Part shown: positions 15,220 to 23,035 of the stretch, piece after piece
How the letters are laid out: every line of letters begins with the position of its first letter
How positions within the stretch are numbered: the stretch's first letter is position 1
Assembly (NCBI GenBank): GCA_903877385.1
Contig: CAIRDP010000006.1
Coordinates: 1 to 43,230, forward strand
Source of the DNA: an uncultured Bacteroidales bacterium
GTDB lineage: Bacteria > Bacteroidota > Bacteroidia > Bacteroidales > FEN-979
Direction: 5' to 3'
Length of the DNA stretch: 43,230 nt
The notes under the pieces: generated by a model
Database searches by the model: none
The model's input: only the letters and a program-made list of their open reading frames with translations
Told to the model about the DNA's origin: nothing
Program-made: the position numbers and the translations under genes

Positions 15220-15685
15220 CCAAAAAGGTATTCTCTCTTCAGCCCTGTTGATCCTGATGTTATTCCTGGCTTCCTGCGGTCACGACAAACCCTTGGAAAG
15301 GAATGTTGACTTTCCCACAGGATCATGGCAGAGGTATAATAAGCTGAAATTTGAATTACCCGTCAAAGAGAATGGAAAAACCCTTGATGTAATTTTTGAA
15401 CTTCGTTGTAAGAAATCTTTCGTTTATGACGAAATCCCTCTGAATATGATACTTGACACGCCTTCGGGGGAAGAAAGGATTAAGGAATATCTGATACAGA
15501 TCCGCGATAAAAACGGAAATTATTCAGGGACTCTGAATGGAGATACCTGCATAAGCAGGATTTTTCTAAAGAGAAAATTATATTGTTCTAAAAAAGGGAT
15601 TCTGAAAGTTGAAATCGAGAATCTTAACCCGAGAATGAAAACAGAAGGGGTAATTTCAGCCAGGCTGATCCTTATCGGGCATTGA
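15200..15685 (+). CDS. GldH-like lipoprotein (gliding-motility family)
   Basis: A 161-residue predicted lipoprotein: hydrophobic signal then LFLASC with the lipidated Cys26. After it, the pattern FPTGSWQRYNKLKFELPV, FELRCKKSFVYDEIPLNM, TPSGEE, and NPRMKTEGVISARLILIG resembles GldH, a Bacteroidota outer-membrane lipoprotein linked to gliding in Flavobacterium but widespread in non-gliders. The match is by pattern only, so the symbol is left empty. It overlaps the kinase by 20 nt and overlaps the convergent riboflavin kinase gene by 30 nt, so it probably is transcribed with the kinase. Confidence 0.6.
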   Translation: MTKYPLNQKGILSSALLILMLFLASCGHDKPLERNVDFPTGSWQRYNKLKFELPVKENGKTLDVIFELRCKKSFVYDEIPLNMILDTPSGEERIKEYLIQIRDKNGNYSGTLNGDTCISRIFLKRKLYCSKKGILKVEIENLNPRMKTEGVISARLILIGH

Positions 15686-16126
15686 AAGCAGCTTCAGTGC
15701 TTTAATCCTGTCGAGCCGGATCTGATTAACGAGCTGGTCAAGATTCTGAAATTTTTTCTCTTTTCTAATGATCCGGAGGACTGATACGGAGATTTCTTTT
15801 CCATAAATATCTTCAGAAAAATCAAGAATATTTACCTCGATTACCAGATGTTTTCCGCCTATAGTGGGACGCAGGCCAATATTACACAACCCGAAGAATT
15901 TTCTTTCCTGGAGCATAACACTCACAAGGTAAACTCCGTTTGGAATCATTTTCGGTTGAGCCGCCGGGGTTTGGATATTGGCAGTAGGAAAACCAAGAGT
16001 CCTCCCAAGGTGATTTCCATGAACAACCAGGCCCCTGATACAATAATTCTGAACGGCCTGCATTTCGGATAAATGTATGCCCGGGTGAACCGGTTTTGAG
16101 GCTTTATTTGAGGCAGCTTTGCTCAT
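15656..16126 (-). CDS. Stand-alone riboflavin kinase (flavokinase) domain protein
   Basis: Phosphorylates riboflavin to FMN. The 156-residue product contains only the flavokinase domain: VVHGNHLGRTLGFPTAN (nucleotide/metal-binding loop, residues 34-50), PNGVYLVSV, CNIGLRPTIGGK, IEVNILDF, YGKEISV and a closing LVNQIRLDRIKAL. Bacterial RibF is normally about 310 residues with an N-terminal FAD synthetase domain. No such domain is present upstream, since stops and an intergenic region follow, so this is a monofunctional enzyme or a paralogue of a full RibF elsewhere. It overlaps the GldH-like gene tail to tail by 30 nt. It precedes a redox gene block, which could be coincidental. Confidence 0.85.
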   Translation of the reverse strand: MSKAASNKASKPVHPGIHLSEMQAVQNYCIRGLVVHGNHLGRTLGFPTANIQTPAAQPKMIPNGVYLVSVMLQERKFFGLCNIGLRPTIGGKHLVIEVNILDFSEDIYGKEISVSVLRIIRKEKKFQNLDQLVNQIRLDRIKALKLLSMPDKDQPG

Positions 16127-16131
16127 GGGCC

Positions 16132-16139
16132 CAAAACTA
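16132..16139 (-). promoter_or_regulatory. Putative -7 element for the riboflavin kinase gene
   Basis: On the minus strand TAGTTTTG (16139 to 16132) ends 5 nt before the AUG at 16126. If active, the mRNA would start at or next to the AUG and be leaderless. The -33 region is weak. The alternative is a later start at Met22. Confidence 0.3.
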
Positions 16140-16179
16140 CGTAAAAAGAGGCTGGATTCAGAGCAGGGATTTATTTTTT

Positions 16180-16797
16180 TTAATGATACCCGTTAACAAT
16201 ACTCTTGAAGTTACTGATGGCAGTTTTCCCGAAGGTGCAAAAATAAACATGAATGCATAAAAAGAGAGTCACCATAAACCCGCAGAAAAGATGCAACAGA
16301 TCGGTATAATCGAGCCCGCTGATTCCAAGGAGGCTGTGGACCGTAATTTCGGGATATAATAACCCTAAGCCCGACAGTATGACCAGGGGTATAATAATAT
16401 ACATTACACCCACGTAAGAGATTTGCTGCAAAGGATTGAATTTTGAATCCGGTGTTACCGGGAAGGGAGCTTTTTCCTTCCTGAAAACACCTACAGTATA
16501 ATGGTGAAACTGGGTTTTCAAACGTTTAAAATAACCTTTGACTTCAATCACGTAATATGCGCCATTTTTTGTAAATAAATTGCCGATGAAAAATATGATA
16601 TAATTGATTGACAGGAGCACTCCTGCAATATTATGAATGACAACAGCAACATTAAACCTGACGGTTATCGTCGGGTTTGCAAACTGGATACTAAGTCCGG
16701 TTACAATAAGGGTCAGGCAAAGCAGGGCATTCAGTACATGCCATAATCTTATCCAGATGGGATAAAGGTACAGAGGTTCGTTAGTATGATCTTCCAT
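16180..16797 (-). CDS. Cytochrome b/b6-type membrane subunit
   Basis: A 205-residue integral membrane protein with four hydrophobic segments (about 14-37, 48-72, 123-146, 164-187). Histidines suited to two b-hemes sit at H20 and H55 in the first two helices and at H169 and H183 in the last, the arrangement of the HydC/FdnI/thiosulfate-reductase cytochrome b family. Such subunits exchange electrons between membrane quinones and a periplasmic redox partner. The neighbouring heptaheme cytochrome gene ends 2 nt upstream, so the two almost certainly form one complex. Whether it oxidises quinol or reduces quinone cannot be read from the sequence. Confidence 0.8.
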   Translation of the reverse strand: MEDHTNEPLYLYPIWIRLWHVLNALLCLTLIVTGLSIQFANPTITVRFNVAVVIHNIAGVLLSINYIIFFIGNLFTKNGAYYVIEVKGYFKRLKTQFHHYTVGVFRKEKAPFPVTPDSKFNPLQQISYVGVMYIIIPLVILSGLGLLYPEITVHSLLGISGLDYTDLLHLFCGFMVTLFLCIHVYFCTFGKTAISNFKSIVNGYH

Positions 16798-16799
16798 GT

Positions 16800-17822
16800 T
16801 TATTTTGAATTTCGGATACGAAGAAAAGCATGAATCAGAATAGCAGCTATTGTAAAAGTGAAAATTACAATGCTGATGATGTTCAGTGTGTTGTCCTGAT
16901 CGGGACCGATAGTGGCGGTTTCGCTCAGAATTAAACCTTTAACCCATCCTTTCCGTGAAATATTTTCCTGCACCTGGTATTTATACAGCGAAGCATAAAG
17001 GATTGAATTTTTTGCATGACAGGATTCACATTTTTTAACCGCCAGGTTTTTTGGAACTATCTGATGGGCAACGATCAGTGTATCTTTATTCTGTGTATGA
17101 CATTCAATGCAGCGGACATTTGTGAAATGTGAGGCCTGATTTGGGAGCCAGTCATGCTTGTCAAGAAGATTTGGTTTCCTCTTATCGGTAAGCAATTCAT
17201 ATTTCGTTATATCGCTATGACAGTTCAGGCAAATCAGGTTGTCATAAGTGATGGTTTCCTTCAGGTTCTCGTTGGTTCTGGCTTTAATCTTGTAAGTATG
17301 TGGATTGTGGCACATCCAGCAGGTGAAATCCTGGCTGTGTTTTTGTGAATGAACACTGGCCATAAAGTTAGTATCAATCTTTTCGAATTGGAATTTGGCG
17401 TATTTTTCATCCCCCCCATGACAATCCAGGCAATTGGGCTTGGATTCCATACGCAGGTTACCGGCATGAGGAAATGCGGCGTAATCTTCAGAATGGCAGT
17501 CGGTACACTTAAAACCCTTGTGGTTGGACACGTAGAATTCATTGCGGTTAATAATAAGTTCCGAGTACATTCTTTTATTCACCATCTTCTTAGTCTCGTC
17601 ATTTTCATACGTATATTTTGACTGACCGTGGCACTTCAGGCAATGTTCGTTATTCTCGCTGTTTTTAAACTTTGTCAGATCAATTTTTATAATATTTTCC
17701 TGCTTTTCAGTTTTGTCACCGGGAGAAGAATCTGTGGTTTTAGCCAGAGTAAAAGCAAGGGCAAAACAGAGTAAGAGGACGAGAACAACCCATGCAGGAC
17801 GGATATTTGCTCTGTAAATCAT
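16800..17822 (-). CDS. Heptaheme c-type cytochrome with two membrane anchors
   Basis: A 340-residue exported cytochrome with seven CxxCH heme-attachment motifs whose first Cys are at 61, 106, 131, 168, 198, 238 and 265. It has an N-terminal hydrophobic segment (about 10-27) and a second near the C-terminus (about 312-335), so the heme domain would be tethered to the inner membrane at both ends and face the periplasm. Several extra His (H100, H118, H158, H161, H229-type) could supply distal ligands. It is immediately followed by the cytochrome b gene. Together they resemble a split version of Geobacter CbcL-like quinol-cytochrome proteins; that comparison is inference. Confidence 0.85.
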   Translation of the reverse strand: MIYRANIRPAWVVLVLLLCFALAFTLAKTTDSSPGDKTEKQENIIKIDLTKFKNSENNEHCLKCHGQSKYTYENDETKKMVNKRMYSELIINRNEFYVSNHKGFKCTDCHSEDYAAFPHAGNLRMESKPNCLDCHGGDEKYAKFQFEKIDTNFMASVHSQKHSQDFTCWMCHNPHTYKIKARTNENLKETITYDNLICLNCHSDITKYELLTDKRKPNLLDKHDWLPNQASHFTNVRCIECHTQNKDTLIVAHQIVPKNLAVKKCESCHAKNSILYASLYKYQVQENISRKGWVKGLILSETATIGPDQDNTLNIISIVIFTFTIAAILIHAFLRIRNSK

Positions 17823-17868
17823 AGATAGGACTAGTTAATTACCGGTTAAAGATCAATAGAATAAAATA

Positions 17869-17905
17869 AATGGGTGTTTACTTTGAATGAAAGCAAACAC
17901 CCATT
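17869..17905 (-). terminator. Terminator after the monoheme cytochrome gene
   Basis: AATGGGTGTTT (17869-17879) pairs with AAACACCCATT (17895-17905), 11 bp, extended inside the loop by CTTT/AAAG. On the minus strand a T-rich tract follows. It separates the monoheme cytochrome from the heptaheme/cytochrome b unit, which therefore probably has its own promoter in the remaining space before 17822. Confidence 0.75.
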
Positions 17906-17929
17906 CGTATAGTGTTTTAATACACTGGA

Positions 17930-18349
17930 TTATTTTTTCAGTGTGCGCATGTAAGCAACCAAAGCCCAACGATCGTTAGCTTCAGGAATTTTCTTTTCGT
18001 AAGACGGCATTTCATCGCGGCCTTTGCTGGTTTCGAAGAAAATATCGCCGTCGGACTGACCCTGGAAAGCAGCGGCAGTGAAGTCACCGGGATTTGTTTT
18101 CAAAGAAGCGGCTTTTGGACCGTCGCCAAGGCCTTTACCACCGTGGCAGGATTTGCAATGCTTTGCCCAAAGATCTTTGCCATTGTTAACAACGCCTGCA
18201 TCTTTAAGATTTACCGGGCTTTTAACAGATTTTGCAGCAGCAGGGATATCCCATGCCTTTTTAGCCTGAGCAAAGGAGTTTCCTGTGATGAAGAAAATTG
18301 CGATCACCATGGTGATCAGAACTGTGATGATTCTCTGTGTTGTTTTCAT
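17930..18349 (-). CDS. Small periplasmic monoheme cytochrome c (class I)
   Basis: A 139-residue electron carrier with a signal peptide ending near SFAQA (about residue 29). One heme motif, CKSCH at 65-69, is followed by GGKGLGDGP and a probable axial Met115 in DEMPSYEKK. The closing helix is WALVAYMRTL, as in class I cytochromes of the cytochrome c6/CCA type. It would shuttle electrons between membrane complexes in the periplasm. It lies between the inner-membrane heptaheme/cytochrome b pair and the barrel gene, with its own terminator downstream. Confidence 0.9.
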   Translation of the reverse strand: MKTTQRIITVLITMVIAIFFITGNSFAQAKKAWDIPAAAKSVKSPVNLKDAGVVNNGKDLWAKHCKSCHGGKGLGDGPKAASLKTNPGDFTAAAFQGQSDGDIFFETSKGRDEMPSYEKKIPEANDRWALVAYMRTLKK

Positions 18350-18454
18350 AATCCAATTTGGTTTATTAAGGGTTTATATTTCATCTTTTGCCCGGAGTTC
18401 CGGATGGTATTACTTACAGGTCCGGGTTGTTTAAACGTTGTTCGTACAATTACA

Positions 18455-19390
18455 TTAGAAACTCCACAAACGGGTAATGTTAAAGCCGAAAAGTATGTAT
18501 CCGTTCCAGAAATCGTTGGTTTTATTCATAGCTGTGACGTACTGGGGCACAATGCCGTTTGCGACAGCACAAAAGATCTGGAAAGTATGCGTACTTGTTG
18601 AAATTTCCCAGCCAAGGCTGATGTTCTGGTAAGGAGCAACTCCGCTTTTAACCGAAAGCCAATGGTTTGGATATCTGACAACAAAAGCCGGGTCATAATT
18701 CACGACGATTGGCTGTTCAAAAGCCAGGATAAGGGATGACTGTGGACTAACCTTCAAACGGCCAAGCAGTGAAAAGGATGCAACATCGTTGGTGGAAACC
18801 GAATCGACTTTGTTAAAATGAGAGTAAGCCAGACCAAGCTGCATCGAGAACATTTTGCAGAAACGGCGGGCGAACATGAATTCATGGTACCAGGAAAACC
18901 TGTCGCTGAATTTGTAATTCATTCCGAAAACTTTACGATCGGAAGCGTCCAGCCCCAGGTTGCCATAATAAGCAATGGTGAGAGGGCATCCGCCTTTACG
19001 CTGATGCAAAAAAGTGTATTTCACCTGAAAATCCTGTACCATATGATTTTTAGTAGTACCAAGCCCGATAACAAGGTTTTTCACCGGGGTGAAGTTCAGT
19101 CCCAGGCGTATGTTGGAAGCGCCCCAAAGGCCAAAGATATCGGTCCATTTGTTTTGGATGGTTCCGAAACGGTGTTCAAGGACAAATTCAAGGGTATGTG
19201 CCGGGGGCTGATCCACGGTCTGGTAATCCATAAAAATTCCGCTCTCGAAAGCCCTTTTTTCAAGAGGCTTTTTTACAGGGACGGAAGCTGAATCCGTTGC
19301 TTCCTGTGCGAAAGACACAGCAAGGCCCGAGAAAACGAATATTATGCTGAAGATGATCTTTTTGATTGTCATGGTAATGGTTTTATTCAT
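18455..19390 (-). CDS. DUF5777-type outer-membrane beta-barrel protein
   Basis: A 311-residue exported protein with a signal peptide cut near VSFAQ. The rest alternates polar and hydrophobic residues, with repeated strands ending in aromatic residues and C-terminal Phe (FGFNITRLWSF), as for an outer-membrane barrel. The early segment ESGIFMDYQTVDQPPAHTLEFVLEHRFGTI matches what I know of the DUF5777 family (quoted in part: HTLEFVLEHRFG). Such genes in Bacteroidota occur beside cytochromes. Function is unknown; a porin for a small substrate, or a sleeve for a redox protein, are both guesses. The upstream lipoprotein gene ends 8 nt before it. Confidence 0.65.
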   Translation of the reverse strand: MNKTITMTIKKIIFSIIFVFSGLAVSFAQEATDSASVPVKKPLEKRAFESGIFMDYQTVDQPPAHTLEFVLEHRFGTIQNKWTDIFGLWGASNIRLGLNFTPVKNLVIGLGTTKNHMVQDFQVKYTFLHQRKGGCPLTIAYYGNLGLDASDRKVFGMNYKFSDRFSWYHEFMFARRFCKMFSMQLGLAYSHFNKVDSVSTNDVASFSLLGRLKVSPQSSLILAFEQPIVVNYDPAFVVRYPNHWLSVKSGVAPYQNISLGWEISTSTHTFQIFCAVANGIVPQYVTAMNKTNDFWNGYILFGFNITRLWSF

Positions 19391-19398
19391 GTTAATAC

Positions 19399-19758
19399 TT
19401 AATTGTTCAAAGCACCCTGGTTAATCCAGTTCTTGATCAGCCCGGCAGAAGTTGCGTCGCAGTATGCCGACATTGCTCCAGTAGTGATTTCCTGATAAAG
19501 TACACTGGATGAGGCATTCCCTGCAACAACCAGGCTATTGTCCATCAGACTTTTATATGAACTTCCTGCTGTGAGATTAGGAACAGGGCCGCCTGGTTTA
19601 TGACAAGTGCAGCCTGAATTAAAAATTGGCTGGATCTGGGTTGAATAAAGCACTGGAACATTGGGTGAGGGAACATCGGGTACTATTGTGGCATATTTAC
19701 AGGCCGAAAGAGAAGCAAGTACCAGAAAAACGGTTAAAAGGTTGACTAATTTTTTCAT
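19399..19758 (-). CDS. Small cytochrome-like lipoprotein with a CXCH motif
   Basis: A 119-residue lipoprotein: signal then lipobox LASLSAC with Cys20. The body follows the pattern of small Bacteroidota/Planctomycete-type cytochrome domains: STQIQPIFNSGC, PNLTAGSSYKSL, and a terminal LIKNWINQGALNN. Where these proteins carry CxxCH, this one has C50-T51-C52-H53, one residue short. The nucleotides (19600-19611) are unambiguous and in frame. Met96 could be a distal ligand. It may bind heme in an unusual way, bind another metal, or have lost heme. It is probably co-transcribed with the DUF5777 barrel gene. Confidence 0.7.
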   Translation of the reverse strand: MKKLVNLLTVFLVLASLSACKYATIVPDVPSPNVPVLYSTQIQPIFNSGCTCHKPGGPVPNLTAGSSYKSLMDNSLVVAGNASSSVLYQEITTGAMSAYCDATSAGLIKNWINQGALNN

Positions 19759-19812
19759 TTTTCAATGTTTAGTGTTAAAAATGACGATTCTGAAATCTTA
19801 ATTTTTTATGAA

Positions 19813-19847
19813 AAAAGGCTTCAGGATTGCTTTTCCTGAAGCCTTTT
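19813..19847 (-). terminator. Terminator after the hexaheme lipoprotein gene
   Basis: A perfect 14-bp stem AAAAGGCTTCAGGA (19813-19826) with TCCTGAAGCCTTTT (19834-19847) and a 7-nt loop, followed on the minus strand by a T-run. It lies 20 nt past the hexaheme stop and splits the island into separate transcripts. Confidence 0.85.
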
Positions 19848-19866
19848 CTGATAGATTATACCAGAA

Positions 19867-20952
19867 TTATTTTTTTAATCCGGTAAAATATTGGATGCCG
19901 TCAGTAAGCATATCAAGGGTATAAAGATGGTTGTGAACGCCCATACTGCGGTCAGCATAGACCATCGAGAAATTCCAGTAAATTGCCAATTGGATCTGGG
20001 GGCGTTTAAAGGGCTTGGTTGCACTTATCGAGCCTTTGAGAACCATGTTGACAGAGTCAAGAATATTGTTCTGTACAAGTAAAACTTTTAACTGGTTTAA
20101 TTTAGTGGTAATTTCAGTTTGGACTCCGTTATAATCAAAGGTGGTTCCGATTGAGGCATGGCAGGGTTTGCAAACCGCAACATTGTCGCCCGTGCTTAAA
20201 CTTGACATGGTAAGAGTGTGACCTCCAACAAAATTGCCTTGTGCAGTTCCGAGATGGCAGTCATGGCAGGTTGCCTTATCCTTGTGGGGTGATGTTCTGA
20301 AAGCAGCAGTACCCATTTCATAAGCACCTTTTGCAGCGAGCATGAGGAATTGTGGCCCGTGATGCGGTCCCCAGCGGTTGCTGGTGATTGCAATGGTATC
20401 TGTTCCCTTAGGATTGGTCAGAGGGGGAACTGCCGGCCTGGCCTGGTGGCATTTGCCGCAAAGGTTTGAGGTACCGTCTACTATTCCATTAGTAGTAACC
20501 GAAAGGTCAATGGAAGCAGTCGTATCAATATACGGATGAACCGGGGTAACGCTTCTCAAAGTCCAGTCGGCCGGGGTATAGGTGCTGTGAATTAAATGAC
20601 AGGTGCGGCAATTGATAGGAGCTGCATCTGCATAAGCCTGTGTTACTGTTGAACCTGTCTGAAGTTTTTCCAGGAAACCTTCATGACTGTGGCAGCCGGA
20701 ACAACCACTACGGGCAGCCTCAGCAATGGTACTTGCTGATGCATGTTTTGAAGCATCATACTGGAAAACTTTTACAACGATGGTATCACTAAAGGTATGG
20801 CAAAGGGTACAGGTTGCATTCGCATCCTTACCGTTTGATCCGTTGGCACCAGCGGGGCCCTGGGGGCCTTCCTTGGTACAACCGATAAAAATAAGACCGG
20901 AAACCGCCATAACCATGATCCCCGATAGTACTAACAAGAGTAATCTTTTCAT
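19867..20952 (-). CDS. Hexaheme c-type cytochrome lipoprotein with collagen-like stalk
   Basis: A 361-residue exported protein with signal peptide and lipidated Cys25 (FIGC). Next come five Gly-X-Y triplets, GPQGPAGANGSNGKD, a collagen-like spacer that would hold the cytochrome away from the membrane. Six CxxCH motifs start at C48, C84, C115, C165, C229 and C261. The last 90 residues are helical and heme-free. Multiheme c proteins of this kind act in outer-membrane or periplasmic electron transfer. Which membrane it sits in cannot be told: no clear sorting signal. It has its own promoter region and terminator. Confidence 0.85.
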   Translation of the reverse strand: MKRLLLLVLSGIMVMAVSGLIFIGCTKEGPQGPAGANGSNGKDANATCTLCHTFSDTIVVKVFQYDASKHASASTIAEAARSGCSGCHSHEGFLEKLQTGSTVTQAYADAAPINCRTCHLIHSTYTPADWTLRSVTPVHPYIDTTASIDLSVTTNGIVDGTSNLCGKCHQARPAVPPLTNPKGTDTIAITSNRWGPHHGPQFLMLAAKGAYEMGTAAFRTSPHKDKATCHDCHLGTAQGNFVGGHTLTMSSLSTGDNVAVCKPCHASIGTTFDYNGVQTEITTKLNQLKVLLVQNNILDSVNMVLKGSISATKPFKRPQIQLAIYWNFSMVYADRSMGVHNHLYTLDMLTDGIQYFTGLKK

Positions 20953-21000
20953 ATTCTTTCAAATTTTGTTAATAAATGCATTTATAGATAGCAGACAATG

Positions 21001-21027
21001 GTGCAAAATTCTTGCACGACAAAAATA
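21001..21027 (-). promoter_or_regulatory. Putative promoter and dyad of the hexaheme gene
   Basis: On the minus strand TATTTTTG (21027 to 21020) fits TAnnTTTG, and just downstream GTGCAA-N5-TTGCAC (21001-21017) is a 6+6 inverted repeat that would overlap the transcription start. The dyad may be an operator or the base of a leader hairpin. The -33 element is weak, as expected for an activated promoter. Confidence 0.4.
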
Positions 21028-21102
21028 TTAATTTTAGTTGTTAGAAATTTAACAGAAAGGTGAGATTTGTTTCTGAAAGAAATGATATGCCTCAATCCTT
21101 GA

Positions 21103-21116
21103 TTGATATATGTCAA
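21103..21116. promoter_or_regulatory. Putative FNR-type operator upstream of the hexaheme gene
   Basis: TTGATATATGTCAA has the symmetric form TTGA-N6-TCAA and differs from the FNR consensus TTGAT-N4-ATCAA by one base. It lies 43 bp past the stop of the FNR-type regulator gene and about 75 bp upstream of the putative -7 box of the hexaheme gene, a plausible activator position. Confidence 0.5.
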
Positions 21117-21158
21117 TGGTCAAACGTGCAGACATCATCTGAAACCGGGTTGTTTTTC

Positions 21159-21854
21159 TCAGCCGGTTTCGCTGATCTGTTTTAGTTGCTTGATATTTAA
21201 TATTTCAAAGATATTCCCGTCAACTGTGAGTATGCCTTCCTCCTTGAATTCCTTGAGGATCCTGATCGCACTTTCCTTCGACATTCCTGAAATATCAGCC
21301 AGGTCCTGTCGTGAGATAGTCATATTAAAAGGGTTGGTACAGTATATTTTCTCGGAAAGATAAAACAAGGCATCAGCAATGCGGCCATGCATCTGTTTCT
21401 GGGTAAGACTGATTACCTGTTCAAAATTAAACAGTGTTTGGGCGGAGGTGCGCTTTATAAAATCTTCGGCAAAATCAGGATTAGAACGGATCAGTTTTTT
21501 AAATATGGAAGTATCTACCAGGCAGGCAGTAGTGTCCTCGACTGCAGAGGCAGAGTAATAATGTTTATTGTCGAGATACACCCCGGGGCCAAAAATATAA
21601 TCTACAGGCTTTACCAATGCAAGAATAAGGTTCTTGCCGTATCCTTCGATATAGATTTTGGTTAAACCCGAAGTAACGCAAATGAAATGTGAGGATGGAG
21701 TTCCCTGTTTGAACATGATCTCACCGGCTTTATAAGCAACGTGAAACCTCCCTGTATTTATTTGTTCAAGCTCCTCATTTTTAAGACTTTTAAAAATAAA
21801 AGATTTGCAATTACAGTCAGCGCAGTTTAAAAAAAACATTGGTTTTCCGTTCAT
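21159..21854 (-). CDS. Crp/Fnr family transcriptional regulator, FNR-like with Cys set
   Basis: A 231-residue regulator: cyclic-nucleotide-type beta-roll (about 25-125), dimer helix, and winged helix-turn-helix (about 175-225). Cysteines C11, C14 and C16 stand before the beta-roll. C111 in AVEDTTACLVD aligns with Cys122 of E. coli FNR (ALETSMVCEIP), giving four candidate ligands for an oxygen-sensitive Fe-S cluster, although the N-terminal spacing C-x2-C-x1-C is shorter than in FNR. The recognition helix SKESAIRIL keeps the Glu194 and Arg198 that read TTGA in FNR. Next to cytochrome genes, it is a good candidate for their regulator. Confidence 0.85.
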   Translation of the reverse strand: MNGKPMFFLNCADCNCKSFIFKSLKNEELEQINTGRFHVAYKAGEIMFKQGTPSSHFICVTSGLTKIYIEGYGKNLILALVKPVDYIFGPGVYLDNKHYYSASAVEDTTACLVDTSIFKKLIRSNPDFAEDFIKRTSAQTLFNFEQVISLTQKQMHGRIADALFYLSEKIYCTNPFNMTISRQDLADISGMSKESAIRILKEFKEEGILTVDGNIFEILNIKQLKQISETG

Positions 21855-21983
21855 TCTTTCTCCGTCAAAGAAACCATTCCCGGACTAAGCTGTTTGTTTA
21901 ATTGATGAATCCCCGGGAAAAAGAAGTCAGTTCGTTATAAATCAACAAAATGCACTTTTGCGATAGCACAAAAATAACAAAAG

Positions 21984-22043
21984 AATTGATAAATAGCAAA
22001 AAATCAATGACTTTTTATCAATTACTATATTGAGTTAAATCAA
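21984..22043. promoter_or_regulatory. Cluster of TTGA/TCAA half-sites upstream of the FNR-like gene
   Basis: AATTGATAAA (21984-21993) and TTTATCAATT (22014-22023) form a 10-bp inverted repeat with another ATCAA between them. TTGAGTTAAATCAA (22030-22043), overlapping the asd stop codon, is TTGA-N6-TCAA and one base off the FNR consensus. The stretch may carry autoregulatory sites or act as an AT-rich terminator for asd. The AT-rich background makes chance matches likely. Confidence 0.35.
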
Positions 22044-23035
22044 TGCCCGGAGGGATGATCCCCAAAGAGGAATTCGGCGATCTGCACGGCATTGGTAGCT
22101 GCACCTTTTCTCAGGTTGTCGGCAACCACCCAAAGGTTTAAAGAATTTGCCTGGCTTTCATCACGTCTTATCCTACCAACAAATACTTCATCTTTGCCTT
22201 TTGAAAAAAGAGGCATGGGATAAAGATTTTCGGAAGGATTGTCCTGAACTACCACACCGCTTGTGTTTCCCAGCAAACCCGAAACGTCTTCCAGCACAAA
22301 GTCATTTTCGAATTCTATGTTAACAGCCTCGGAATGTCCGCCTATCACGGGTACCCTTGCAATGGTGGCTGTGATTCGTATAGAATAATCATTGAGGATT
22401 TTTTGGGTTTCTTTTATCAGCTTCTCCTCTTCGGTAGTATAGCCGTTTGGCAGGAAGCTGCCACCGTGTGGAAAAAGGTTAAGGTCAATGGGATGAGGGT
22501 AAGCCAGGGGACCACTGATCCCGGCACGTTCATTTTCAAGCTGCCGAACCGCACCGATACCTGTTCCTGTAACCGATTGATATGTGGCTACAACAATTCT
22601 TTTAATCCTGTATTTCAGGTGAAGGGGCGCAAGCACCATGACCAGCTGTATGGTAGAACAGTTTGGATTAGCAATAATTTTATCGGATTTTTTGATGATG
22701 CCGGCATTGATTTCCGGAACGATCAGGGGGACATCCTCATCCATCCTCCAGGCCGAAGAGTTATCAATCACAGTTATTCCGGCTTCGGCATACTTTGGGG
22801 CCCATTCCTTTGAAGTGCCCGCACCGGCACTGAATATGGCCACTTCAGGCTTCATGGAAATGAGCCCGGCATGATCCATCACTTTGTATGACTTGCCGGC
22901 AAATTCAATCAATGAACCAACAGATTTTAAGGAAGCTACAGGATAAAATTCTTCGGGCCGGATATGTCTTTCTTCCAGCACTTTGATTATCTCCCTTCCT
23001 ACCAAACCGGTCGCGCCAACTATAGCAAGTTTCAT
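22040..23035 (-). CDS. asd: Aspartate-semialdehyde dehydrogenase
   Basis: Reduces aspartyl phosphate to aspartate semialdehyde with NADPH, the branch-point step to lysine/diaminopimelate, methionine and threonine. The 331-residue product begins with the Rossmann motif GATGLVG (7-13), has the active-site Cys126 in NPNCSTIQ, and the conserved VIGGHSEAVN block with the catalytic His. Length is normal for the bacterial family. It has a putative -7 box TATCTTTG on the minus strand at 23059 to 23052, 16 nt before its AUG. Divergent from the lamin-tail protein. Confidence 0.97.
   Translation of the reverse strand: MKLAIVGATGLVGREIIKVLEERHIRPEEFYPVASLKSVGSLIEFAGKSYKVMDHAGLISMKPEVAIFSAGAGTSKEWAPKYAEAGITVIDNSSAWRMDEDVPLIVPEINAGIIKKSDKIIANPNCSTIQLVMVLAPLHLKYRIKRIVVATYQSVTGTGIGAVRQLENERAGISGPLAYPHPIDLNLFPHGGSFLPNGYTTEEEKLIKETQKILNDYSIRITATIARVPVIGGHSEAVNIEFENDFVLEDVSGLLGNTSGVVVQDNPSENLYPMPLFSKGKDEVFVGRIRRDESQANSLNLWVVADNLRKGAATNAVQIAEFLFGDHPSGH

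What the first reader, a model, noticed from the sequence alone, without database searches (positions are those of the whole stretch)
16180..21854. A compact redox island with an FNR-type regulator: possible undescribed electron-transfer module
Seven minus-strand genes in a row encode a cytochrome b, a heptaheme cytochrome with two membrane anchors, a monoheme cytochrome c, a DUF5777 barrel, a lipoprotein with CXCH, a hexaheme lipoprotein and an FNR-like regulator. Seen directly: 14 CxxCH motifs plus one CXCH, signal peptides, a barrel, two terminators. Inference: electrons move from quinol through the cytochrome b/heptaheme pair and periplasmic cytochrome c to heme proteins at the outer membrane. 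No terminal reductase or oxidase is in the block, so the acceptor is unknown.
Basis: partly seen in the sequence, partly recalled or inferred. Interest (0 to 1): 0.72.

Follow-up and report, generated by a model that had tools for sequence, protein, structure and literature searches.

The report
Bacteroidales electron-export gene cluster
A conserved set of heme protein genes with its own FNR-like regulator, found in uncultured Bacteroidales, looks like a wire that carries respiratory electrons from the inner membrane to the cell surface; what it delivers them to is not known.

Summary
In detail: seven minus-strand genes, 14 CxxCH plus one CXCH, two strong terminators. The block is a conserved unit: in the 80 best relatives kept, the fetched stretch holds cytochrome b in 79, DUF5777 in 77, the monoheme lipoprotein in 74, the hexaheme lipoprotein and an FNR gene in 60 each.

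New: (1) most near relatives at the same site carry three more genes (ferredoxin, NrfD, Ig-like protein); the window lacks them. (2) A TTGA-N6-TCAA box lies before the regulator gene (30 of 32) and hexaheme gene (27 of 34), about 0.6 expected each. (3) Terminators recur at the same two junctions (29 of 29, 25 of 34). (4) The hexaheme lipoprotein resembles OcwA, a cell-surface terminal reductase, so the block holds a candidate reductase. (5) CXCH is shared by the window's five closest relatives, in a family whose spacing varies from 1 to 4.

Best reading: FNR-controlled quinol-to-surface electron export, a new variant of known systems. Acceptor, direction and localisation are inferred.

The parts
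22030..22043 (-). FNR-like box TTGATTTAACTCAA upstream of the regulator gene, overlapping the end of asd
   Evidence: a box within 200 bp upstream in 30 of 32 loci
21969..21976 (-). TATTTTTG, Bacteroidota-type -7 element (TAnnTTTG, recalled) of the regulator gene, 67 bases after the box start
   Evidence: spacing 65-67 in 27 of 31 box/element pairs
21159..21854 (-). Crp/FNR-family regulator; conserved C11, C14, C111
21103..21116 (-). FNR-like box TTGACATATATCAA upstream of the hexaheme gene; one of three TTGAYWWWWRTCAA places in the genome
21020..21027 (-). TATTTTTG -7-like element of the hexaheme gene, 89 bases after the box start
   Evidence: spacing 89-91 in 23 of 27 pairs
19867..20952 (-). 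hexaheme lipoprotein (CTKEGP at the lipid cysteine, collagen-like linker), OcwA/NrfA/octaheme nitrite reductase superfamily
19811..19849 (-). intrinsic terminator between hexaheme and monoheme lipoprotein genes
   Evidence: stem plus T tract at this junction in 29 of 29 measured near loci
19399..19758 (-). monoheme-type lipoprotein with CXCH motif
19600..19611 (-). codons of the CTCH motif (residues 50-53)
18455..19390 (-). DUF5777 outer-membrane beta barrel, 12 predicted strands
17930..18349 (-). periplasmic class I monoheme cytochrome c (His69/Met114)
17868..17906 (-). intrinsic terminator between cytochrome c and heptaheme genes
   Evidence: stem plus T tract in 25 of 34 measured near loci
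16800..17822 (-). heptaheme cytochrome with C-terminal membrane helix (invariant H331, R335)
16180..16797 (-). cytochrome b with four conserved His for two hemes (H20, H55, H169, H183)
16127..16179 (-). 53-base junction where near relatives carry the ferredoxin-NrfD-Ig-like trio
15656..16126 (-). riboflavin-kinase-domain-only protein that follows the cluster in many relatives; neighbour, membership uncertain

Best explanation
The block encodes an electron export route of Bacteroidales, probably switched on when oxygen is short. Menaquinol is oxidised by the cytochrome b and its partner heptaheme cytochrome (in most near relatives together with a ferredoxin/NrfD/Ig-like membrane module). Electrons pass to the periplasmic monoheme cytochrome c, cross the outer membrane with the help of the DUF5777 barrel and its monoheme-type lipoprotein, and reach the hexaheme, OcwA-like lipoprotein, probably on the cell surface, which reduces an external acceptor such as ferric iron or humic matter. 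A Crp/FNR regulator with three conserved cysteines acts at TTGA-N6-TCAA before its own gene and before the hexaheme gene; two conserved terminators with partial read-through grade the dose: most hexaheme protein, less barrel set, least inner-membrane complex. Shown: gene set, conservation, conserved possible ligand residues, boxes, terminators. Inferred: oxygen control, binding of the regulator, read-through, direction, localisation, acceptor, heme on CXCH, order of carriers.
For: Conserved block in Bacteroidota genomes. Conserved residues: four His in cytochrome b, seven motif plus seven further His in the heptaheme protein, Met114 in cytochrome c, six motif plus six further His in the hexaheme protein. 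Hexaheme profile best PDB match OcwA 6i5b E 6.5e-12 and top Foldseek match of its model (8.6e-4, TM 0.41); OcwA is described as a cell-surface terminal reductase (PMC6703420, passages). CTKEGP after the lipid cysteine (38 of 75 rows) partly fits the Capnocytophaga surface signal C-X-K-(D/E)2-X (PMC5080379, passages). Boxes far above chance. Relatives place NapC/NirT-type, NrfD/ferredoxin or 19-heme/cytochrome b fusion genes beside the core, quinol-side modules by their families.
Against: No acceptor, cell fraction, expression or binding was tested. OcwA similarity covers mostly the C-terminal third and is shared with nitrite reductases (E 4e-10 to 2e-7); the hexaheme model is of middling quality (pLDDT 70). 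OcwA itself shows that ligand state cannot be read from His counts. The surface signal lacks the second acidic residue, and half of the rows lack CTKEGP. The window lacks the ferredoxin/NrfD trio. The barrel is too small to sheath a multiheme cytochrome. The regulator lacks the third N-terminal Cys of FNR as a conserved residue, and another FNR paralogue could use the same box. The genome also has genes read as aa3- and cbb3-type oxidases, NrfHA and a qNOR-like protein, so other acceptors are open to it.
Confidence: 0.58

Rival explanations
1. Periplasmic or surface reductase chain for a soluble acceptor: the hexaheme lipoprotein is a nitrogen or sulfur oxyanion reductase fed by the cytochrome b/heptaheme complex.
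For: Profile matches to octaheme nitrite reductase and NrfA at 4e-10 to 2e-7; Pfam Cytochrom_C552 just over cut-off (24.8 against 24.1 bits); FNR-type regulator.
Against: No Lys-ligated CxxCK heme; six conserved further His for six hemes; an NrfHA pair lies about 26 kb away.
Confidence: 0.17
2. Electron uptake: the same chain runs inward, from external reduced iron or a partner cell to quinone or to the cytochrome c pool and the oxidases of the genome.
For: Monoheme lipoprotein plus small barrel recalls Cyc2 (recalled); PF00115 oxidase-family genes are present.
Against: Heptaheme protein of c3/c7 type and a b-type quinol dehydrogenase-like partner; OcwA-like surface protein. Carbon fixation was not looked for.
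Confidence: 0.12
3. Redox balancing or ferric assimilation under oxygen limitation rather than respiration that supports growth.
For: The genome keeps several respiratory options; the trio is absent in four lineages (my reading), which suits a minor role.
Against: Elaborate 14-15 heme set, conserved control and terminator elements.
Confidence: 0.1
4. Several unrelated operons that happen to be neighbours.
For: Two internal terminators split the block; the FNR gene is often divergent and the hexaheme or cytochrome c gene is missing from some loci.
Against: The order is conserved in dozens of genomes at different chromosomal sites, and the terminators themselves are conserved.
Confidence: 0.03

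Closest known systems
Geobacter Cbc complexes (CbcBA, CbcSTU, CbcL) and Shewanella SirCD
   Same: cytochrome b plus multiheme c, or ferredoxin plus NrfD, as quinol:cytochrome c oxidoreductases for external electron transfer (PMC11434368, passages; CbcL also PMC9012536, passages)
   Different: separate heptaheme partner with its own membrane helix; Bacteroidales; company of DUF5777 and lipoproteins; homology to Geobacter proteins not tested
Mco of ANME archaea
   Same: cytochrome b followed by a multiheme cytochrome of 7 to 11 hemes (PMC9012536, passages)
   Different: archaeal, cytochrome b related to a hydrogenase subunit, no outer membrane
OcwA of Thermincola
   Same: C-terminal multiheme region; surface electron transfer in OcwA
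   Different: six hemes not nine; lipoprotein with collagen-like linker; Gram-negative host
Porin-cytochrome conduits (MtrAB, PCC) and Cyc2 (recalled)
   Same: outer-membrane barrel encoded with cytochromes
   Different: 12-strand barrel, partner is a monoheme-type lipoprotein, no decaheme periplasmic cytochrome in the block
Alternative complex III
   Same: NrfD of a relative (L085) is nearest ActC (6f0k, E 1.7e-53)
   Different: short ferredoxin without the large ActB part; no ActF or ActA recognised in the block; trio absent from the window block
E. coli FNR
   Same: Crp fold, TTGA-N6-TCAA box, N-terminal CxxC and a central Cys
   Different: third N-terminal Cys not conserved

Membership tests
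FNR (E. coli type) | cNMP-like domain plus Crp-type HTH | tested here: met
   PF00027 and PF13545 over cut-off
FNR (E. coli type) | four cluster cysteines CX2CX5C plus a central Cys (recalled) | tested here: not met
   only C11, C14 and C111 conserved (99-100% of 82 rows)
FNR (E. coli type) | TTGAT-N4-ATCAA-like site at promoters of the block | tested here: met
   TTGA-N6-TCAA in 30 of 32 and 27 of 34 upstream regions; 18 of 34 in distant loci. Binding not tested; an FNR paralogue exists
Porin-cytochrome complex (MtrAB/PCC) | large barrel that sheaths a periplasmic multiheme cytochrome (recalled) | tested here: not met
   12 strands predicted; nearest folds FapF, NanC, OmpG
Quinol dehydrogenase of the Cbc/CbcL/Mco kind | diheme cytochrome b with a multiheme c partner | tested here: met
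   four conserved His; genes 2 bp apart; partner with membrane helix. Quinol activity itself not testable here
Quinol dehydrogenase of the Cbc/CbcL/Mco kind | sequence homology to Geobacter CbcA/CbcB/CbcL | not tested
   no Geobacter sequence was compared
OcwA-like terminal reductase | shared fold and sequence | tested here: met
   E 6.5e-12 by profile, 8.6e-4 by Foldseek; partial coverage, model pLDDT 70
OcwA-like terminal reductase | cell-surface location | not testable with these tools
   only a partial surface-export signal, CTKEGP
NrfA/octaheme nitrite reductase | Lys-ligated catalytic heme (CxxCK, recalled) | tested here: not met
   all six motifs CxxCH in the 20-row alignment
c-type cytochrome (monoheme lipoprotein) | CxxCH | tested here: not met
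   CXCH in the window and 5 close relatives; CX2CH in 72, CX4CH in 18, CX3CH in 1 of 97 rows
c-type cytochrome (monoheme lipoprotein) | covalent heme | not testable with these tools
   needs heme stain or mass spectrometry
Alternative complex III | ActA-F set | tested here: not met
   only an ActC-like NrfD and a short ferredoxin, in relatives

The most novel reading that the evidence does not exclude
A distinct outer-membrane conduit: a 12-strand DUF5777 barrel paired with a lipoprotein that carries a single heme, like a split Cyc2, handing electrons to a surface hexaheme protein; and within it a natural c-type heme on a CXCH motif, in a family that tolerates one to four residues between the cysteines.
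Probability: 0.25. Interest if true: 0.8.

Novelty: new variant of a known kind. Interest (0 to 1): 0.6.

Why it matters
If right, a lineage of uncultured Bacteroidales, many from lake metagenomes, could respire external acceptors by a route with its own barrel, lipoproteins and regulator, giving a searchable marker set for electron export in a phylum usually seen as fermenters and polymer degraders (recalled). The variable heme-motif spacing would test what cytochrome c maturation machines accept in nature.

Tried and rejected
Considered and rejected: (a) CXCH as a sequencing error: five other genomes share it and group with the window (96/99 support). (b) The C11 ferredoxin/NrfD locus as the moved trio: its ferredoxin falls outside the group of the cluster copies (92/82, long branch), so I read it as an older paralogue. 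(c) MtrB-type conduit: barrel too small. (d) Heme biosynthesis genes as the flanking trio, guessed from lengths: Pfam shows NrfD and 4Fe-4S proteins instead, and no family for the third. (e) The C67:43599 box lies inside an ORF and was dropped as a promoter site. (f) System II cytochrome maturation for the window genome: no ResB match in a genome rated 98% complete, though some relatives have CcsBA or ResB beside the block; a system I search was not run.

Led nowhere: papers on DUF5777 (0) and on CXCH heme motifs (0); passages of PMC8112865 held nothing on cysteine spacing; PDB search with cytochrome b (0). The phylum-wide profile search matched 56 of 395 genomes, but besides the window only one match was strong and near full length; the others are weaker or partial (seven in ~500-aa frames at 1e-45 to 4e-51, the rest at 1e-12 or weaker in each genome's best match) and were not used as evidence. 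In one search, 32 of 149 genomes matched, the window's own included; two only at E 3e-4 and 9e-4, and one gene (G056) is in two pieces with a stop. The treekit label test for trio loss ignores unlabelled rows and was not used; four lineages is my reading of the tree. The plain hairpin-energy measure also rang in the regulator-hexaheme gap (23 of 27), so it was replaced by a stem-plus-T-tract count with shuffles.
Full report
WHAT IS THERE. Seven genes lie in a row on the minus strand between an aspartate-semialdehyde dehydrogenase gene (asd, 22040-23035) and a riboflavin-kinase-like gene (15656-16126). In transcription order they are: a Crp/FNR regulator, a hexaheme lipoprotein, a small lipoprotein with CXCH, a DUF5777 barrel, a monoheme cytochrome c, a heptaheme cytochrome with a C-terminal membrane helix, and a cytochrome b of family PF01292. 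The motif count is 14 CxxCH and one CXCH; 24 other ORFs that I picked as likely genes have none in 11,102 aa. The two terminators fold well below shuffles (z -6.5 and -7.7).

CONSERVATION. With the heptaheme protein, 32 of 149 genomes drawn from the order match, the window's own included (two matches are marginal). A scan of one genome per species gave 456 relatives, of which the tool kept the best 80. In those 80 stretches, some cut by contig ends, a match (phmmer, E up to 1e-3, anywhere in the stretch) is found for cytochrome b in 79, DUF5777 in 77, the small lipoprotein in 74, cytochrome c in 65, the FNR gene and the hexaheme gene in 60 each. Of 7 other genomes of the genus 5, and of 29 of the rest of the family 25, have a strong match (E 1e-107 or better, counted by eye). 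Of 395 genomes drawn from the phylum only one besides the window had a strong near-full-length match. The block is patchy within the order and rare outside it.

THE MISSING TRIO. In 28 of 32 loci that hold both cytochrome b and the kinase gene, three more genes lie between them (gap 3.2-3.4 kb in 25, about 5 kb in 3): a 4Fe-4S ferredoxin with a Tat-like signal (my reading), an NrfD protein (L085 copy nearest ActC of alternative complex III, E 1.7e-53) and a 300-aa protein without a Pfam match, with a C-terminal hydrophobic helix. The window has 53 bases there; L071, L072, L088 and L098 also lack the trio. On the heptaheme tree (52 rows) these rows and the window sit in four places among trio-bearing rows, so I read four losses. 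The window genome keeps a paralogous ferredoxin, NrfD-Ig fusion and cytochrome c elsewhere (contig C11), next to an FNR paralogue, with the box TTGATATATATCAA between the two.

CONTROL. For this and the next paragraph I used 35 of the 80 loci (L065-L095, L098, L106, L112, L114), those most like the window's site, less those without the gene or enough DNA. TTGA-N6-TCAA occurs within 200 bp upstream of the regulator gene in 30 of 32 and of the hexaheme gene in 27 of 34 (window included); Markov shuffles give 0.6 and 0.55; the starts of the small lipoprotein, cytochrome c and heptaheme genes give 0 of 35, 1 of 36 and 0 of 36. The distance to a TAnnTTTG element is 65-67 in 27 of 31 and 89-91 in 23 of 27 box/element pairs. 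TAnnTTTG as the Bacteroidota -7 element is recalled. Of the other loci (L033-L062 and L096-L144), 34 have a divergent FNR gene near the block, and 18 of these have the box within 300 bp upstream or the first 60 bases of the gene (0.7 expected; 17 of 33 without the duplicate L144). In the whole genome the stricter TTGAYWWWWRTCAA occurs at three places only: before the hexaheme gene, at the C11 paralogue, and inside an unrelated ORF; the reversed control pattern has as many sites, so the number itself is no evidence, the places are. The regulator keeps C11, C14 and C111 in 99-100% of 82 rows, but not the third N-terminal cysteine of E. coli FNR (recalled).

DOSAGE. A stem of at least 7 pairs with a T tract lies between the hexaheme and small lipoprotein genes in 29 of 29 (1.4 expected from shuffles) and between the cytochrome c and heptaheme genes in 25 of 34 (1.8 expected) of the near loci with a gap of 15-600 bases; at the lipoprotein-barrel, barrel-cytochrome c and heptaheme-cytochrome b junctions in 0 of 23, 0 of 32 and 0 of 2 (most of these gaps are short); in the regulator-hexaheme gap in 7 of 27 (3.0 expected). 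TAnnTTTG elements before the later segments are few and not shared. I infer read-through from the hexaheme promoter with graded dose.

LIGANDS. Rows here are one per locus, filtered by length. Cytochrome b: H20, H55, H169, H183 in 98-100% of 106 rows, fit for two b hemes. Heptaheme: seven motifs and seven further His (H101, H119, H158, H175, H223, H232, H253), plus H331 and R335 in the membrane helix, at 100% of 110 rows. Cytochrome c: Met114 at 100% of 85 rows. Hexaheme: six motifs and six further His (H70, H122, H197, H223, H245, H340) at 99-100% of 78 rows. OcwA warns against reading ligation from counts: it too has enough His for all hemes, yet shows Met-ligated and high-spin hemes (PMC6703420, passages).

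THE HEXAHEME LIPOPROTEIN. A profile of 20 rows (of 78) finds OcwA first (6.5e-12), then octaheme nitrite reductase (4.1e-10) and NrfA; the AlphaFold model (pLDDT 70, pTM 0.67) also finds OcwA first. The alignments cover the C-terminal hemes and the GVHN motif best. No CxxCK is present. Its lipid cysteine is followed by CTKEGP in 38 of 75 rows with a recognisable lipobox, near the surface-export signal C-X-K-(D/E)2-X (PMC5080379, passages), with one acidic residue fewer, and by a collagen-like linker.

THE BARREL AND THE CXCH LIPOPROTEIN. The DUF5777 model (39 rows, pLDDT 81) has 12 strands and resembles FapF, NanC and OmpG. The small lipoprotein has CX2CH in 72, CX4CH in 18, CXCH in 6 and CX3CH in 1 of 97 rows; alignment position 96 is Met in 53 and His in 20, a possible sixth ligand. 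The six CXCH rows are the window and its five closest relatives. A second DUF5777 gene of the genome lies beside two other lipoprotein-like proteins with CxxCH and a YceI gene, so barrel plus monoheme lipoprotein may be a reusable unit. PMC3601427 (passages) says heme attachment by system I goes wrong at non-physiological cysteine spacing.

SETTING. The genome has three PF00115 genes, which I read as an aa3-type oxidase next to a ferredoxin/NrfD pair, a cbb3-type oxidase and a qNOR-like protein, and an NrfH-NrfA pair. By eye, 27 of the 80 record titles carry CAI/CAJ accessions, several with lake names that occur in the stratified-lake dataset PMC8121793 (listing and abstract start only), and 8 carry LacPavin; that Lake Pavin is iron-rich is recalled.

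HOW IT MOST LIKELY WORKS. Quinol to cytochrome b/heptaheme (with ferredoxin/NrfD where present), to cytochrome c, to barrel plus small lipoprotein, to the hexaheme protein at the surface, to an external acceptor, switched by the FNR-like regulator. Recurrent flanking genes of relatives are of the quinol side or of cytochrome maturation: NapC/NirT-type hexahemes, NrfD/ferredoxin, a 19-heme cytochrome b fusion, CcsBA. The inner-membrane parts work like Cbc, SirCD and Mco complexes (PMC11434368 and PMC9012536, passages).

NOVELTY. No paper in the library names DUF5777; searches for Bacteroidota electron export (listings, and passages of one paper) gave one near case, the bioanode Bacteroidetes cluster of PMC8258643 (passages and section 2.4 seen), called uncharacterised there; whether it is the same block was not tested. 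I rate it a new variant of a known kind.

Noticed in passing
15656-16126: Riboflavin-kinase domain without the FAD synthetase part, matched in 33 of 80 loci, at the end of the cluster where I looked; a second flavokinase match in a 313-aa frame lies on contig C63.
   Followed up: partly
L158 (G000 C67:144082-149637): Ferredoxin, NrfD and a p300-like protein with one heme directly before cytochrome oxidase genes: a short ferredoxin/NrfD module that may feed an aa3-type oxidase.
   Followed up: partly
L155 (G000 C11:142650-147256): FNR paralogue divergent from ferredoxin, an NrfD-Ig fusion of 751 aa and a cytochrome c, with an FNR-like box between.
   Followed up: yes
L157 (G000 C6:46623-48775): NrfH-NrfA pair about 3.4 kb beyond the window end.
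   Followed up: no
L063 (G000 C19:76500-96400): Second DUF5777 gene with two lipoprotein-like proteins with CxxCH, a tRNA_anti-like protein and YceI.
   Followed up: partly
L038:11119-13923, also L036, L048, L059: About 930-aa proteins with 19 heme motifs next to the core; the L038 copy is fused to a cytochrome b561 domain, CbcL-like in layout.
   Followed up: no
L084: Record titled Alphaproteobacteria carries a near-copy of the Bacteroidales block of L087; probably a mislabelled genome bin.
   Followed up: no
16800-17822, residue H331: Invariant His and Arg in the C-terminal membrane helix of the heptaheme protein; possible extra heme or quinone contact.
   Followed up: no
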